Source: Bacillota bacterium
Lineage (GTDB): Bacteria > Bacillota > DTU025
Direction of reading: 5' to 3'
NCBI GenBank assembly: GCA_012842765.1
Contig: DUWJ01000187.1
Location: 1 to 14,669 of the forward strand
Length of the DNA: 14,669 nt
The translations under genes and the position numbers were made by a program. The notes beneath the pieces are model-generated. The model was given only the letters and a program-made list of their open reading frames with translations, searched no databases and had not been told where the DNA came from. Below, piece by piece: positions 2,104 through 12,680 of this stretch (within the stretch, counting starts at the first letter, position 1; each line of letters opens with the position of its first letter).

Positions 2104-2670
2104 CTAAAACGAATCCACGTCGCCAGAGTTCCCGGCCTCTTCATCCTGGGGACTGTTGGCAGTGCCATACTCCGCTAGCGCATCCCAGATATCCTCTCCG
2201 TGGATGCCAGGGTCGTCGTAGGCGCGGGCAGGATCCCTGCCGCCGAACGGAGGCCTCACAACTTCTTCCTCGATAGGCCTAGGACCGCTTCTTCCGGAAG
2301 GTGACAGAGAATCGGCTTTGCACTGAGCGCAACTGGTCGTCCACGGTATCGCGTCGAGGCGCTCGGGAGGAATATCCCGACCGCACTGGTCGCATTTGCC
2401 ATAAGACCCATCCGCGATACGCTCCAGTGCAGATTCTATTTGGGCGACTATATCCCGCCCGTGGTGTATCAAGCCGAGGTTAATAGATCGCATCTCCAGC
2501 GCAGAAGCGCTATCTGCCGTGTGATTATCGTAACTCGAAAGCTCGCCGCTCCACTCCGATTCTGGCGTGTCGAAACCCGCAGTCTCCTCAACATCCCGCA
2601 CCCTCGATTCCGCCTGCGCCTTCAGTTCGATAAGCCTGCTCTTGCACGAATCGATCTTTTCGGGTTCCAT
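2104..2670 (-). CDS. YteA-type DksA/TraR zinc-finger regulatory protein
   Basis: This 188-residue protein matches the YteA branch of DksA/TraR zinc-finger proteins. The N-terminal half is helical and charged, with the family motif GELSSYDNHTAD (42-53). A four-cysteine zinc site follows: Cys93, Cys96, Cys114 and Cys117 (KCDQCGRDIPPERL ... SCAQC). After it comes an acidic tail with EEEVVRPPFGGRD, DGED-like GEDIWDALAEYGT and a closing NSPQD. DksA-type proteins act on RNA polymerase through its secondary channel. Whether YteA proteins do so is not established to my knowledge, so the role is inference. The start ATG has a strong GGAGGT site with a 6-base spacer and lies 16 bases after the DUF5665 gene, consistent with co-transcription. 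Confidence 0.88.
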   Translation of the reverse strand: MEPEKIDSCKSRLIELKAQAESRVRDVEETAGFDTPESEWSGELSSYDNHTADSASALEMRSINLGLIHHGRDIVAQIESALERIADGSYGKCDQCGRDIPPERLDAIPWTTSCAQCKADSLSPSGRSGPRPIEEEVVRPPFGGRDPARAYDDPGIHGEDIWDALAEYGTANSPQDEEAGNSGDVDSF

Positions 2671-2686
2671 CTGCGCACCTCCCGCG

Positions 2687-2986
2687 TCATACGCCGCTAT
2701 CCTTCACTATTTTGACGATCTTGGCGATTAGGTTGCCTATGATTGGAATATTAAGCGAGATGACAACGGAAAGTGCATATAGGAATAGCGCGGTAAGGAC
2801 GGACGCCCCTATAGCAATGCCGAATCCCCTAGCCATTCCAGCAAGGAAGTTCGACCAAATGACCCGCCGCGGATTGCGCATAAACTCGACATACTCCGCA
2901 ACGCTAGAATCCTCGAGGCGCCGAGAGAGCTGCATGATTTGGGACATGAGGGCCCTGACTTCGCCCGGCCGCCGCTTCCTTCGCAC
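2687..2986 (-). CDS. DUF5665-type small membrane protein
   Basis: This 99-residue protein starts with GTG behind a GAGGTG ribosome site with a 6-base spacer. It has a basic N-terminus (RRKRRPGE), an amphipathic helix (LSRRLEDSSVAEYVEFMRNP), the characteristic stretch VIWSNFLAGMARGFGIAIG, and a hydrophobic segment of about 20 residues (ALFLYALSVVISL). It ends with NIPIIGNLIAKIVKIVKD, which may form a second membrane-associated helix. This pattern fits DUF5665, a family of unknown function common in spore formers, as I recall it. It sits between divIVA and the YteA-type gene, 44 bases from divIVA. Membrane location is supported by sequence; no function can be assigned. Confidence 0.8.
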   Translation of the reverse strand: MRRKRRPGEVRALMSQIMQLSRRLEDSSVAEYVEFMRNPRRVIWSNFLAGMARGFGIAIGASVLTALFLYALSVVISLNIPIIGNLIAKIVKIVKDSGV

Positions 2987-4306: not shown

Positions 4307-4351
4307 GCAAGCACCTCCATACAACCGGCTCGCAGTGGGAAATGCCGGATA

Positions 4352-5141: not shown

Positions 5142-6434
5142 CTATTTCGGCATCCGCGCACTACGGCCGCCATCGCCGAGCTTTACCCTATCTCCTTCGC
5201 TCAGGCCAGCGACCACGGCTTCGGTCCCATTTGAACCAATGACCTCAACTTCCTTGAACCTGAACCGGCCAGTCCGAAAAAGATAAACTCCAGTCACCCC
5301 GTACTTGCTTGTTAAAGCCTCAATCGGAATCACCGTCCCCGAGACGTAGCCGGTGATGAAGTCGATATCCTCCGACCGGAGACTCGTGAGGGTTGTCGCA
5401 TATCTATCTAGAGCCACATGGAACGCCCAAGTTCCTTCTCCCATGTCAGGACGGTTCATAGCGCCCATGACAGTGGCAGGAACAGCCTCGAGGGCCAACC
5501 GTGGGAACCGAACCCATACTCGCGCGCCGACCGCAGGTACGCATTCCCCAGGAAACTCGGCAAAGACAAGGAGATCAGTCCTGAAGTTCTGGACTTCGCG
5601 GAAGACTGCAGAACCCGCCGCCACCAGATCCCCCTCAGCCCGAACGTGAGGAAAGGCATCATAGTCAGCGGGATTAATTAGAAGAAGATCAGGATTGCGC
5701 GGGTTAAATATCCCTTCAAGCCCATCCAAATGGGCGCTGATCAGAGAAGCGTCGCAGCTTCGAAGGACAGCCAGCGCGCGTCCTGCCGCCGCGTCAGACT
5801 GGCGCTTTGCTTCCGCTATGGCAGCGGCGGCTGCCTGAGTGTCAAAGACGATCCGCTCCACCTCGGCCTCAGCCGCTGCCTCCCGCTTGTGGAGCTGCTC
5901 CAGTTCGGAATGGACCTTGTTCGCGTTCTTAGCATCCTTTCGATCCACATACGCCTTGAGTTCCTCTTCCTTGAGCGCAATCTGGACCCTTATAGCGAGC
6001 AGACGGTCTTTTTCCCTGCCCTCGCGCAGAGCCGCCTCCTGAACGAATTTGTCCAACTCTTCCTCGATGCGCAGAGCGTTCGCCTCCACAGATGACGAAA
6101 TCGCTGTATCACGCACCTCAGCAACAGCAGTGCCGGCCGCGACCTTCTCGCCATCCGGTACCAGAAAATGGATTATTCCGCTGATTGGAGTGATTACGAC
6201 ACGTTCATCCCTGACTATTATGGCCTTGCCCCGAGAGGAAAGCTCGATCGAACCGTGGCGGGCCACTGCAGATTCGGAGAACCTGATCACTAGGCCCGGA
6301 CTGACCATTGCGTAAAGAGAATAGGAAAGCACCGCGACCACAACAACGATCACGGCAATTGCGAAGGACTTCTGCGTGCGCTTAGCGGGCGTCCGCTCTT
6401 CCACCCTAGCCCGACGCGGTTCTGGAGCCCTCAT
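5142..6434 (-). CDS. HlyD-like membrane-fusion (periplasmic adaptor type) protein without visible transporter partner
   Basis: From ATG 6434 the protein has 430 residues. A short basic cytoplasmic N-terminus is followed by one membrane helix (about 24-44), so most of the protein is outside. The adaptor layout is visible: a first lipoyl-like half (SGIIHFLVPDGEKVAAGTAV, about 85-104), a long charged alpha-helical hairpin with heptad character (about 115-225, e.g. LEQLHKREAAAEAEVERI), a second lipoyl-like half (VRAEGDLVAAGSAVFREV), a beta-barrel-type region, and a membrane-proximal end with IPIEAL and VVAGLSEGDRVKLGDGG. Such adaptors normally work with an ABC or RND pump; none is encoded here, although similar genes sit beside yggS in other spore-forming clostridia as I recall. 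I chose 6434 because GGGGAGG lies 12 bases upstream; an ATG at 6491 would add 19 residues but lies inside the palindrome. It has its own candidate promoter. Confidence 0.85.
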   Translation of the reverse strand: MRAPEPRRARVEERTPAKRTQKSFAIAVIVVVVAVLSYSLYAMVSPGLVIRFSESAVARHGSIELSSRGKAIIVRDERVVITPISGIIHFLVPDGEKVAAGTAVAEVRDTAISSSVEANALRIEEELDKFVQEAALREGREKDRLLAIRVQIALKEEELKAYVDRKDAKNANKVHSELEQLHKREAAAEAEVERIVFDTQAAAAAIAEAKRQSDAAAGRALAVLRSCDASLISAHLDGLEGIFNPRNPDLLLINPADYDAFPHVRAEGDLVAAGSAVFREVQNFRTDLLVFAEFPGECVPAVGARVWVRFPRLALEAVPATVMGAMNRPDMGEGTWAFHVALDRYATTLTSLRSEDIDFITGYVSGTVIPIEALTSKYGVTGVYLFRTGRFRFKEVEVIGSNGTEAVVAGLSEGDRVKLGDGGRSARMPK

Positions 6435-6480
6435 GCCAGCTGATGACCTCCCCGCAGCCCCCACCGTCACGCAGACGGCG

Positions 6481-6496
6481 GGCCGATGCATCGGCC
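6481..6496. repeat. Perfect 16-bp palindrome, candidate operator
   Basis: GGCCGATG is followed without spacer by its exact reverse complement CATCGGCC. It begins four bases after a perfect -10 hexamer on the minus strand, so it covers the expected transcription start and first transcribed bases of the HlyD-like gene. This placement is typical of a repressor operator; the alternative is an RNA hairpin at the 5' end. No T-run follows on the minus strand, so it is not a terminator for the Hint gene. Confidence 0.6.
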
Positions 6497-6499
6497 ATA

Positions 6500-6508
6500 A
6501 TTATATCA
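6500..6508 (-). promoter_or_regulatory. Extended -10 promoter (TGATATAAT) overlapping the Hint stop codon
   Basis: Reading the minus strand, the stop codon TGA of the Hint gene is immediately followed by TATAAT, giving a perfect extended -10 (TGn-TATAAT). There is no clear -35 (GTTTCT at 16 bases is poor), which extended -10 promoters tolerate. It would drive the HlyD-like gene, whose start lies about 65 bases downstream. Confidence 0.55.
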
Positions 6509-7012
6509 CAGCCCATGCACGAGAAACTCATCAGCAACGAACGTGCCATCTCCAGTCTGAAGCTGATACACATATCCCGAAAAACCGGTGGACGCAGTCG
6601 CGGAAAGGACTCCCAAGGTTCTGAAACTAATCTCTTCGCCAAGAGGAGGAGCATTCTTCCCAAGTCTCGGACGTTCAAGCATGAGAAGCGCGTCTCCGGC
6701 CTTGACATCGTTCGCCGCCACGACCACGTCGACCGGGCCCCTCCTCACGTATAGCTCGTGTTCGCCAGTCAGCGAAATACGGCCAAGACGCGTGCGGATG
6801 TGGCAGAGCTGCTCACCCTCCCACAGATTGCGCCTGGCCACGCAAAGAAGATCGGTCCAACCCGATCTGCCTAAGATCTTGTATTCCCCAAGATCATCGC
6901 CGCCAGCATCGGAATCGAGCATGGCATTGAAGAACACAAGAGCTACTTCCAGAATTCGGCCAGCCGAGTCCTTGAGGAAAACAGTTGTATCCTCGGAAAC
7001 ACAGCCTTGCAT
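6506..7012 (-). CDS. Stand-alone Hint (intein/hedgehog-type) domain protein
   Basis: The 168-residue product is almost exactly one Hint fold. The N-terminal splice motif is C-V-S-E-D-T-T-V (block A, Cys4). Block B is LTGEHELYV with Thr82 and His85, followed by the usual VKAGDALLM. The C-terminal block F/G is GYVYQLQTGDGTFVADEFLVHG. Only three residues (Met-Gln-Gly) precede Cys4, and only Leu168 follows the terminal motif. The penultimate His166 is kept, but the Asn needed for C-terminal cleavage by Asn cyclisation is Gly167. There is no homing endonuclease insert and no attached toxin or host protein. ATG 7012 has GGAGG nine bases upstream and a near-consensus sigma-A promoter just before it. 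The fold assignment is from motifs I can see; function is unknown. It could be an intein remnant that gained its own promoter, or a domesticated Hint protein. Confidence 0.82.
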   Translation of the reverse strand: MQGCVSEDTTVFLKDSAGRILEVALVFFNAMLDSDAGGDDLGEYKILGRSGWTDLLCVARRNLWEGEQLCHIRTRLGRISLTGEHELYVRRGPVDVVVAANDVKAGDALLMLERPRLGKNAPPLGEEISFRTLGVLSATASTGFSGYVYQLQTGDGTFVADEFLVHGL

Positions 7013-7036
7013 GTAACATCGCCTCCAGCAGGCGAA

Positions 7037-7065
7037 AGTATAACATCAGTGGCACCGTCTTTCAA
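7037..7065 (-). promoter_or_regulatory. Sigma-A promoter of the Hint gene
   Basis: On the minus strand TTGAAA (7060-7065) is separated by exactly 17 bases from TATACT (7037-7042). This is one of the best -35/-10 pairs in the window. The expected start is around 7030, about 18 bases before the ATG at 7012, leaving a short leader that contains the GGAGG ribosome site. The -35 partly overlaps the right arm of the AAGGGG/CCCCTT hairpin. Confidence 0.65.
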
Positions 7066-7520: not shown

Positions 7521-7769
7521 TCACAGTGTCAGTCCCGCGTCATCGACGAGGATTACATCTAGGCCGATCTTGCGTATCCGATCCCATTCTATGACCAGCT
7601 CCCCCCCGCGCCCCAAAAATCCCAGAACTTTTCCGCCGCTGGGTATCACAAAGCTGATGACTTTGCCTGTGTCCATGTCTATCTCCACGTCGAACATGAA
7701 GCCCAGTCTCTTTCCATCGTTGACGCTCACGACTTCCTTGACCCTCAGTTCAGATGCCCGCTGTATCAC
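7521..7769 (-). CDS. ylmC: YlmC/YmxH-family PRC-barrel sporulation protein
   Basis: The product is 82 residues: VIQRASELRVKEVVSVNDGK, LGFMFDVEIDMDTGKVISFV, IPSGGKVLGFLGRGGELVI, EWDRIRKIGLDVILV. This is the PRC-barrel pattern of the YlmC/YmxH family, small proteins usually found next to sigG in endospore formers and of unclear function. The start is GTG at 7769, decided by a perfect GGAGGT with a 6-base spacer. A longer in-frame reading back to 7829 would add 20 residues that do not resemble the family and would bury this ribosome site. It follows spoIIR by 84 bases. Surface residues are mixed charged and there is no membrane segment, so it is probably cytoplasmic. Confidence 0.9.
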   Translation of the reverse strand: MIQRASELRVKEVVSVNDGKRLGFMFDVEIDMDTGKVISFVIPSGGKVLGFLGRGGELVIEWDRIRKIGLDVILVDDAGLTL

Positions 7770-7853
7770 GTGCGCACCTCCTGAAAACGAAAACTGGCCC
7801 TCCACATAGTATGCGGGAGCCAGCTGCAAGGTGCTTGTTCCAGTGGCCTATCT

Positions 7854-11621: not shown

Positions 11622-12680
11622 CTACCTTGCCCGTCTCAGGAACGGAGGAATATCCAGATCGTCGCTTCCAGCGAGAGGCTTGATCTGGACTCTATCAGTC
11701 CTGGCCTTCAGAGGCTGCTCCGCCTGTTGAACATCGAATCCAGTAGCGATAACGGTCACCTTAAGCTCGTCCCCCATTGAATCATCAATGACTGCGCCAA
11801 AGATGACAAGCGCATCCGGGTCGGCAGCCTCCGAAACTATCTCTGCTGCCTCGTTCACCTCAAATAAGCCCATATTTGAAGACCCAGTAATGTTCATGAG
11901 AACGCCCTTCGCCCCGTTTATGGAAGCCTCCAAAAGCGGGCTGGCCGTGGCGGAGCGAGCGGCTTCTGCAGCGCGGTTTTCTCCGCTTGCAATGCCTATC
12001 CCCATCAATGCAGAACCCGCGTCAGTCATGATAGTCCTTACGTCCGCAAAATCGAGGTTTATCAGTCCCGGAACGGTTATGAGGTCTGAAATCCCCTGCA
12101 CTCCTTGGCGTAGCACGTCGTCCGCAATCCTGAACGCATCGAGCATCGATGTCTGGCTCTCTGCAACCTGCAACAACCTATCATTGGGTATGACAATAAG
12201 GGTATCGACCTTATCTTTCAGCTCTTCCGTTCCGTGGTCCGCCTGCGCCATTCGTCGCCTGCCCTCAAATGAAAACGGTTTTGTTACAACGCCCACTGTG
12301 AGAGCGCCTTGTTCCTTAGCGATCTCGGCAATCACCGGGGCAGCTCCGGTACCTGTGCCCCCGCCCATTCCACACGTGATGAACACCATGTCTGCGCCAT
12401 CCAGCGTTTCTGCAAGCAAATCTCGGCTCTCTTCAGCCGCCTTCTTACCAATCTCGGGATTAGCGCCGGCTCCAAGCCCTTTTGTAAGCTTTTCGCCTAT
12501 CTGGATCTTCCGGGGCGCATTAGACATGCGCAGGGCCTGGGCGTCAGTATTTAAGGCCACGAATTCGACACCTTTTAATCCTGCACTTATCATCCTGTTG
12601 ATGGCGTTACTCCCGCCCCCGCCAACCCCAACCACTTTGATGTTGGCCAACTGGTCAACCTCAAGCTCTAGTTCAAACAC
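11622..12680 (-). CDS. ftsZ: Cell division GTPase FtsZ
   Basis: FtsZ polymerises into the cytokinetic ring. The 352-residue protein has the nucleotide-binding opening [19 protein letters not shown], the tubulin signature [11 protein letters not shown] (106-116), the P-loop-proximal [14 protein letters not shown], and the T7 synergy-loop region [11 protein letters not shown] (208-218). The conserved C-terminal peptide [10 protein letters not shown] binds FtsA and other partners. The disordered linker between the globular part (ending about 316) and this peptide is only some 25 residues, so the whole protein is shorter than B. subtilis FtsZ (about 380). The start is GTG with AAGGGGG seven bases upstream. 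It follows ftsA by 24 bases. Confidence 0.98.

What the first reader, a model, noticed from the sequence alone, without database searches (positions are those of the whole stretch)
6506..7012. A free-standing Hint autoprocessing domain gene inside a division/sporulation cluster
The product is a bare Hint domain: block A with Cys4, block B TGEH with His85 and block F/G ending V-H-G-L. Only Met-Gln-Gly precedes Cys4 and one residue follows the end motif. Hint domains normally sit inside a host protein (inteins) or are fused to toxins or secreted proteins. The catalytic Cys and both His are retained, but the terminal Asn is Gly, so ordinary splicing and C-terminal cleavage should not work, while N-S acyl shift chemistry at Cys4 might. 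The gene has a near-consensus promoter and a good ribosome site, so it is probably expressed. Possible roles: a domesticated intein remnant, a trans-acting protein modifier, or a regulator of the adjacent HlyD-like gene.
Basis: partly seen in the sequence, partly recalled or inferred. Interest (0 to 1): 0.8.

Follow-up and report, generated by a model that had tools for sequence, protein, structure and literature searches.

The report
Stand-alone Hint-fold gene beside division genes
A group of mostly spore-forming bacteria carries, inside its cell-division gene cluster, a small free-standing protein with the fold of protein-splicing elements whose catalytic residues have partly or wholly decayed, which suggests that a self-processing module was turned into an ordinary cell protein.

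Summary

It is a vertically inherited gene: 11 of 12 genomes of its order, 0 of 386 others sampled in the phylum, in the division cluster wherever contigs show it, under purifying selection. In families f1/f2 Cys4 and Thr82 are invariant (13 of 13), the block-B His (10 of 13) and penultimate His (9 of 13) are not, and the terminal Asn is never present. In f3 Cys, Thr and both His are gone (10 of 10). f3 also lacks Spo0A (0 of 3 genomes) yet keeps the gene beside ftsZ.

Best reading: a splicing-dead Hint fold domesticated as a non-enzymatic partner in division or envelope work. The order lacks SepF (0 of 12, against 44 of 49 others), so a stand-in for SepF is a bold, testable option.

The parts
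6506..7012 (-). CDS of the free-standing Hint-fold protein, 168 aa
7001..7003 (-). codon of Cys4 (intein position 1); invariant in 13 of 13 f1/f2 sequences, Gly in 10 of 10 f3 sequences
6767..6769 (-). codon of Thr82, block B TxxH; 13 of 13 in f1/f2, Ala in 10 of 10 f3
6758..6760 (-). codon of His85, block B His; His 10, Gln 3 of 13 in f1/f2; Thr in 10 of 10 f3
6512..6517 (-). codons of His166-Gly167, the places of the intein penultimate His and terminal Asn; Asn not seen at 167 in any of 23 sequences
6812..6835 (-). codons 60-67, motif RRxxWExE; R60, R61, W64, E65 and E67 invariant in all 23 sequences of the three families
7037..7065 (-). sigma-A type promoter TTGAAA-17-TATACT, conserved in 9 of 9 upstream regions of f1/f2 (one with TTGAAT)
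7020..7034 (-). CGCCTGCTGGAGGCG, predicted 5' stem-loop of the transcript that holds the ribosome-binding GGAGG (7022-7026); the only exact copy in the genome (one more with one mismatch); stem complete in 7 of 9 relatives
5142..6491 (-). HlyD-like membrane fusion protein (HlyD_2; below the cut-off of TIGR02828), 14 nt downstream of the Hint gene
7521..7829 (-). YlmC/YmxH, upstream neighbour; in three loci of genomes outside the order ylmC is followed directly by ylmD (PgeF)
11622..12680 (-). FtsZ; in f3 the Hint gene follows ftsZ directly

Best explanation
The gene encodes a solitary Hint-fold protein that descends from an intein-like autoprocessing domain and was domesticated in the ancestor of this order, as a gene inserted downstream of ylmC, ahead of ylmD/hlyD. 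Its conserved function is not splicing and most likely not catalysis: the fold acts as a cytosolic binding or scaffold protein for the product of a neighbouring gene (the HlyD-like membrane protein, FtsZ or another protein of the division cluster), with the hairpin-turn motif RRxxWExE as the likeliest contact site. In two families Cys4 and Thr82 are still strictly kept, so the protein may still make a thioester with, or clip off, its own Met-x-x tripeptide, or use the Cys4 thiol otherwise; the third family has lost this completely and keeps the gene. Shown: the gene, the fold (by prediction, for f1/f2), orthology, synteny, selection, and the pattern of residue loss. Inferred: descent from an intein-like domain, binding role, partner, insertion history. 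Not shown: any biochemical activity or phenotype.
For: Hint fold by AlphaFold2 plus Foldseek/VIA-align. Orthologues in 11 of 12 genomes of the order and in 0 of 386 other sampled genomes of the phylum; 19 proteins among 5.8 billion. Same neighbourhood in all three families as far as the contigs reach: ftsQ-ftsA-ftsZ-(spoIIGA-sigE-sigG-spoIIR-ylmC)-Hint-(ylmD)-hlyD-yggS-ylmH-divIVA. In f3, without Spo0A (0 of 3 genomes; 9 of 9 in f1/f2), the sporulation genes are gone from between ftsZ and Hint while Hint stays linked to ftsZ, ylmD and hlyD, so the role is not sporulation-specific. f3 is homologous over 164 columns (hhalign probability 99.3, E 2e-20; with the single window protein E 6.6e-12 and 3.4e-11). 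On the tree position 85 needs at least 4 changes and 166 at least 7 (4 each if scored only as His or not), against 1 each at 4 and 82. 16 positions are invariant in all 23 sequences, none of them Cys1, block-B Thr or His, or the terminal His-Asn; 7 of the 16 lie in residues 51-67 (1.1% of random placements reach that in some 17-residue stretch). dN/dS by NG86 0.13-0.21 over five pairs (YN00 0.07-0.32). Three loci outside the order have ylmC and ylmD side by side with 35, 123 and 226 nt between.
Against: Cys4 and Thr82 are invariant in 13 of 13 f1/f2 sequences with three residues before Cys4 (in L003-L007 and L009 the start codon was chosen by me next to the conserved promoter and leader, and longer frames are open in some), which looks like retained chemistry rather than mere fold. 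The f3 fold is not shown on its own: its model failed (pLDDT 39) and f3 members hit no Hint profile; the fold there rests on homology to f1/f2. No partner was identified. The gene evolves faster than its neighbours in the pair compared (G001-G002: Hint 0.20-0.32, ylmC 0.05-0.06, spoIIR 0.15-0.18). The cluster of invariant positions was looked at after the fact.
Confidence: 0.6

Rival explanations
1. Still an enzyme in f1/f2: Cys4 with Thr82 (and His85) makes the N-S acyl shift, so the protein cleaves off Met-x-x or passes an acyl group to another molecule, as a Hedgehog-like or B-type BIL-like autoprocessor; f3 lost this secondarily.
For: Cys4 and Thr82 13 of 13 in f1/f2; M-x-x before Cys4. 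A small subset of inteins lacks the block-B His and compensates (passages of PMC6333167). The nearest folds include Hedgehog and BIL domains.
Against: Block-B His is Gln in 3 of 13 and these copies have Gly, Cys and Ser at -1, whereas PMC6333167 reports that in the Ssp DnaB intein the His was essential with Gly at -1 and was compensated by larger residues (passages). Cys, Thr and His are all lost in 10 of 10 f3 sequences while the gene stays in place. A self-cleavage that releases only a tripeptide has no obvious use.
Confidence: 0.2
2. Functional stand-in for SepF: the order has lost SepF from the locus where it normally sits, and the Hint-fold protein took over a FtsZ- or membrane-linked role there. 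(A special case of the best explanation.)
For: SepF (PF04472) in 0 of 12 genomes of the order against 44 of 49 other genomes searched; in 33 of those 44 SepF lies within 3 kb of a relative of the same HlyD, and in the window yggS is followed after 27 nt by ylmH with no sepF between. Hint follows ftsZ directly in f3.
Against: One evolutionary coincidence in one clade. FtsA is present in the cluster and PMC8178401 says that SepF is non-essential in B. subtilis with a role overlapping FtsA (passages). The five other SepF-less genomes have no Hint gene. No FtsZ-binding or membrane feature of the Hint protein was shown.
Confidence: 0.1
3. Neutral relic: a dead intein-derived ORF that happens to persist.
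For: Catalytic residues decay; the terminal Asn is absent.
Against: dN/dS 0.07-0.32 over five pairs and two methods, no stop inside any of the 11 genome copies, conserved promoter in f1/f2, kept in three families.
Confidence: 0.04
4. The Hint protein regulates expression or maturation of the adjacent HlyD-like protein, for instance by translational coupling or by binding its cytosolic N terminus. (Overlaps with the best explanation.)
For: Hint directly precedes hlyD in f1, with gaps of 12-14 nt or 19-nt overlaps of the longest frames in five loci (window, L014, L015, L016, L019).
Against: Gaps of 65 and 223 nt in L017 and L018, and ylmD lies between in f2 and f3; relatives of that HlyD (TIGR02828, E<=0.001, only 1 over the cut-off) occur in 52 of 61 genomes, 42 of them outside the order and without Hint.
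Confidence: 0.15

Closest known systems
Mini-inteins (Intein_splicing PF14890; TIGR01445/TIGR01443)
   Same: Hint fold over the whole length, Cys at position 1, block B TxxH, last strand ending in VH
   Different: No host protein on either side, no terminal Asn, no +1 Cys/Ser/Thr, below the curated cut-offs, catalytic residues not conserved in the family, vertical inheritance in one order
B-type bacterial intein-like (BIL) domains
   Same: Hint fold and N-terminal motifs without the intein C-terminal motif (definition from passages of PMC7765530)
   Different: BILs are described there as lying in hypervariable regions of non-conserved proteins; this one is a single-domain protein in a conserved housekeeping locus
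Hedgehog autoprocessing (Hog-Hint) domain
   Different: Not fused to a signalling domain, bacterial, Cys and His dispensable in f3
NCBI-named 'Hint domain-containing protein' MAG entries P0006 and P0009
   Same: They belong to this same family and already carry a Hint name
   Different: No curated family model reached and no function given; family conservation, synteny and residue loss are worked out here

Membership tests
Hint superfamily (fold) | Horseshoe all-beta Hint fold | tested here: met
Intein | Cys/Ser at position 1 (block A) | tested here: met
   Cys4 in the window and 13 of 13 f1/f2; Gly in 10 of 10 f3
Intein | Block B TxxH | tested here: met
   Thr82/His85 in the window; His in 10 of 13 f1/f2, absent in f3
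Intein | C-terminal His-Asn followed by Cys/Ser/Thr | tested here: not met
   His166-Gly167-Leu168; no Asn at 167 in any of 23 sequences
Intein | Embedded in a host protein with N- and C-exteins | tested here: not met
   Three residues before Cys4 and one after Gly167; own promoter directly upstream
Intein | Passes curated profile cut-off | tested here: not met
   PF14890 18.3 of 35.8 bits; TIGR01445 18 of 24.5 bits
Intein | Protein splicing activity | not testable with these tools
   Needs protein; predicted absent
BIL domain (B-type) | Hint motifs without the C-terminal motif, N-terminal cleavage | tested here: inconclusive
   Motif pattern fits f1/f2 only; cleavage not testable
BIL domain (B-type) | Domain within a larger variable protein | tested here: not met
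   Single-domain protein in a conserved locus
Hedgehog Hog-Hint | Fusion to an N-terminal ligand and sterol transfer | tested here: not met
   No N-terminal domain, only M-x-x; sterol transfer not testable
SepF | SepF domain PF04472 | tested here: not met
   No PF04472 match in the window's genome; the Hint protein has another fold

The most novel reading that the evidence does not exclude
A self-splicing Hint module was exapted into a non-enzymatic cell-division protein that stands in for SepF in a whole order of bacteria: it sits in the locus of SepF's usual neighbours, is retained beside ftsZ after sporulation was lost, and keeps a hairpin-turn interaction motif while the active site decays.
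Probability: 0.1. Interest if true: 0.85.

Novelty: new variant of a known kind. Interest (0 to 1): 0.58.

Why it matters
Hint domains are known as autoprocessors that act on the protein they are part of. A vertically inherited, solitary Hint protein under purifying selection whose active site is lost in stages within one order is a clean case of a splicing element being turned into a host protein, and the copies give a natural series: His kept, His lost, all catalytic residues lost. The fixed place in the division cluster and the absence of SepF make its function directly testable.

Tried and rejected
Split gene or part of a larger frame: rejected. The 7 database proteins used all begin M-x-x-C, and in the 6 genome copies added a start codon at the same distance exists behind a conserved promoter and leader. 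Longer frames open in L004/L016, L017 and L018 (226, 180 and 180 aa by the longest-frame rule) run back through the promoter region and are taken as chance.

Recent intein or mobile origin: no PF14890 match at E<=0.1 in any of 12 genomes of the order (the Hint gene itself is missed by that search, so other weak Hints would be too). One scan of viral contigs with a single peptide pattern gave 8 stretches, none a relative. The source intein clade could not be placed: identities to the 50 solved entries shown are 11-22%.

Sporulation role: rejected as the core role, because f3 lacks Spo0A (0 of 3) and still has the gene in 2 of 3 genomes.

The f3 structure was attempted with A3 and failed (pLDDT 39); no fold search was made with it. 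Sequence searches against PDB were uninformative. Rfam on the window: 0 matches at gathering scores. Regulon of the leader motif: one further site, with one mismatch, in the genome.

Literature: five searches with Hint/intein plus degenerate, domestication, stand-alone, remnant, non-splicing or inactivated terms listed no title or abstract start that describes a solitary dead Hint protein; of the papers listed there only passages of PMC7765530 were read, and subscription papers are not held. A search with TIGR02828 and HlyD/SepF phrases found none.

Rows left out before counts: P0002 (99% identical to the window protein), P0009 (same as the G008 copy by eye), the G001 and G002 genome copies (represented by P0006, one residue different, and P0003; the G002 copy is cut at 88 aa by a contig end), P0016 (partly out of frame near its start, also without Cys). 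The tree and the count of 23 also leave out P0010 and P0011 (close to the two f3 genome copies, which are in); alignment A3 has those two instead of the genome copies.

Full report

Who has it. The protein is found in 11 of 12 genomes of the order; the one miss is 77% complete, and one copy (G002) is cut by a contig end. With the family profile, 11 of 398 sampled genomes of the phylum have it, all in that order. Among 5.8 billion proteins of similar length 19 match; fusions into much longer proteins would not be candidates in that search, but the six-frame genome search has no such limit. Two entries are already named 'Hint domain-containing protein' by NCBI. A scan of genome contigs with the single protein found two named records, both Bacillota MAGs.

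Where it sits. In all three families the gene lies in the division cluster as far as contigs reach (L018 starts and L020 ends at the Hint gene). f1: ylmC-Hint-hlyD; f2: ylmC-Hint-ylmD-hlyD; f3: ftsZ-Hint-ylmD-hlyD, 16 nt after ftsZ and 4 nt before ylmD. ylmD here is the peptidoglycan editing factor PgeF/YfiH by profile. Of 12 loci fetched outside the order, three show both ylmC and ylmD; there they are adjacent with 35-226 nt between and no Hint gene, so insertion of the Hint gene next to ylmC in the ancestor of the order is the simplest history. f3 has no Spo0A (0 of 3 genomes, the best 98% complete) while f1/f2 have it in 9 of 9, and in f3 the block spoIIGA-sigE-sigG-spoIIR-ylmC is absent from this place. 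The Hint gene therefore outlived sporulation and follows the division genes.

What is conserved. In 13 f1/f2 sequences Cys4 and Thr82 are invariant and Cys4 is the fourth residue; His85 is kept in 10 (Gln in 3), His166 in 9, and position 167 is G, T, C or D. In 10 f3 sequences these positions read Gly, Ala, Thr, Leu/Tyr/Phe and Gly/Ser. On the tree position 85 needs at least 4 changes and 166 at least 7 (4 each if scored as His or not), 167 at least 5, against one each at 4 and 82. Only 5 of 20 inner branches are well supported, so the counts are approximate. All 23 sequences share 16 invariant residues, including G51 W52 and R60 R61 x x W64 E65 x E67; none is one of the catalytic positions just listed, and 7 of 16 lie in residues 51-67 (1.1% of random draws reach that in some 17-residue stretch). 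In the model residues 52-62 and 69-74 are strands, so the end of the motif lies at a hairpin turn. f3 aligns to f1/f2 over 164 columns (probability 99.3, E 2e-20), but f3 alone hits no Hint profile and its own model failed.

Selection and expression. dN/dS by NG86 is 0.21 (G000-G001), 0.13 (G000-G002, 88 codons), 0.20 (G001-G002, 88 codons), 0.17 (G007-G003) and 0.16 (two f3 genomes); YN00 gives 0.07-0.32 for the same five pairs, and dS is near saturation in some. In G001-G002 the Hint gene evolves faster than ylmC (0.05-0.06) and spoIIR (0.15-0.18). A promoter TTGAAA-17-TATACT ends 24 nt before the start codon and is conserved in 9 of 9 f1/f2 upstream regions (one reads TTGAAT). The transcript would begin with the stem-loop CGCCU-GCUGG-AGGCG that holds the ribosome-binding GGAGG; the stem is complete in 7 of 9 and has one mismatch in 2, where another fold is predicted.

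How it may work. Splicing cannot proceed without the terminal Asn and a +1 nucleophile (established intein mechanism, recalled). N-S acyl shift at Cys4 is possible in principle, and PMC6333167 (passages) says that some inteins lack the block-B His and that bulky residues at -1 can compensate for it; the three Gln85 copies have Gly, Cys and Ser there, which does not favour it. Because f3 keeps the gene with no catalytic residue at all, the family-wide role is most likely binding. Candidate partners are the neighbours; HlyD is closest in f1 (12-14 nt gap or 19-nt overlap in five loci, 65 and 223 nt in two), FtsZ and PgeF in f3. This step is inference.

SepF. The order lacks SepF (0 of 12; 44 of 49 other genomes have it), and in 33 of those 44 SepF lies within 3 kb of a relative of the same HlyD. 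In the window yggS and ylmH are 27 nt apart. A replacement of SepF by the Hint protein fits this but rests on one coincidence in one clade; the five other SepF-less genomes have no Hint gene, FtsA is present, and PMC8178401 (passages) notes that SepF overlaps FtsA and is non-essential in B. subtilis.

Verdict. It is a new variant of a known kind: a solitary, splicing-dead Hint protein, domesticated in a division locus. I found no description of such a case in the searches, which cover open-licence papers only and of which I read listings, plus passages of one review.

Noticed in passing
window 4325-4351 and the 12 genomes of the order: SepF, usually encoded near yggS and the HlyD relative, is absent from the cluster and from the genomes of the order (0 of 12, against 44 of 49 other genomes).
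   Followed up: partly
L022, L023 (G011, G009): Family f3 lacks Spo0A (0 of 3) and the spoIIGA-sigE-sigG-spoIIR-ylmC block at this place: apparent loss of sporulation inside an otherwise spore-forming order.
   Followed up: partly
L016:10580-11281 and L019:8056-8668: A few hundred bases upstream of the Hint gene in G005 and G006 lie tandem repeats of about 240 and 260 nt with GGAGGC palindromes that resemble the leader motif CGCCTGCTGGAGGCG; no such repeat in the window.
   Followed up: no
window 7020-7034: Ribosome-binding site inside a predicted hairpin at the expected 5' end of the Hint transcript, stem complete in 7 of 9 relatives; a possible translational control.
   Followed up: partly
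window 6492-6505: The PgeF/YfiH gene (ylmD) lies between Hint and hlyD in f2 and f3, but f1 loci have no room for it there.
   Followed up: no
window 2104-2986: A TraR/DksA-type zinc-finger gene (2104-2670) and a DUF5665 gene (2687-2986) are conserved between divIVA and lspA in f1/f2 and were not detected there in f3.
   Followed up: no
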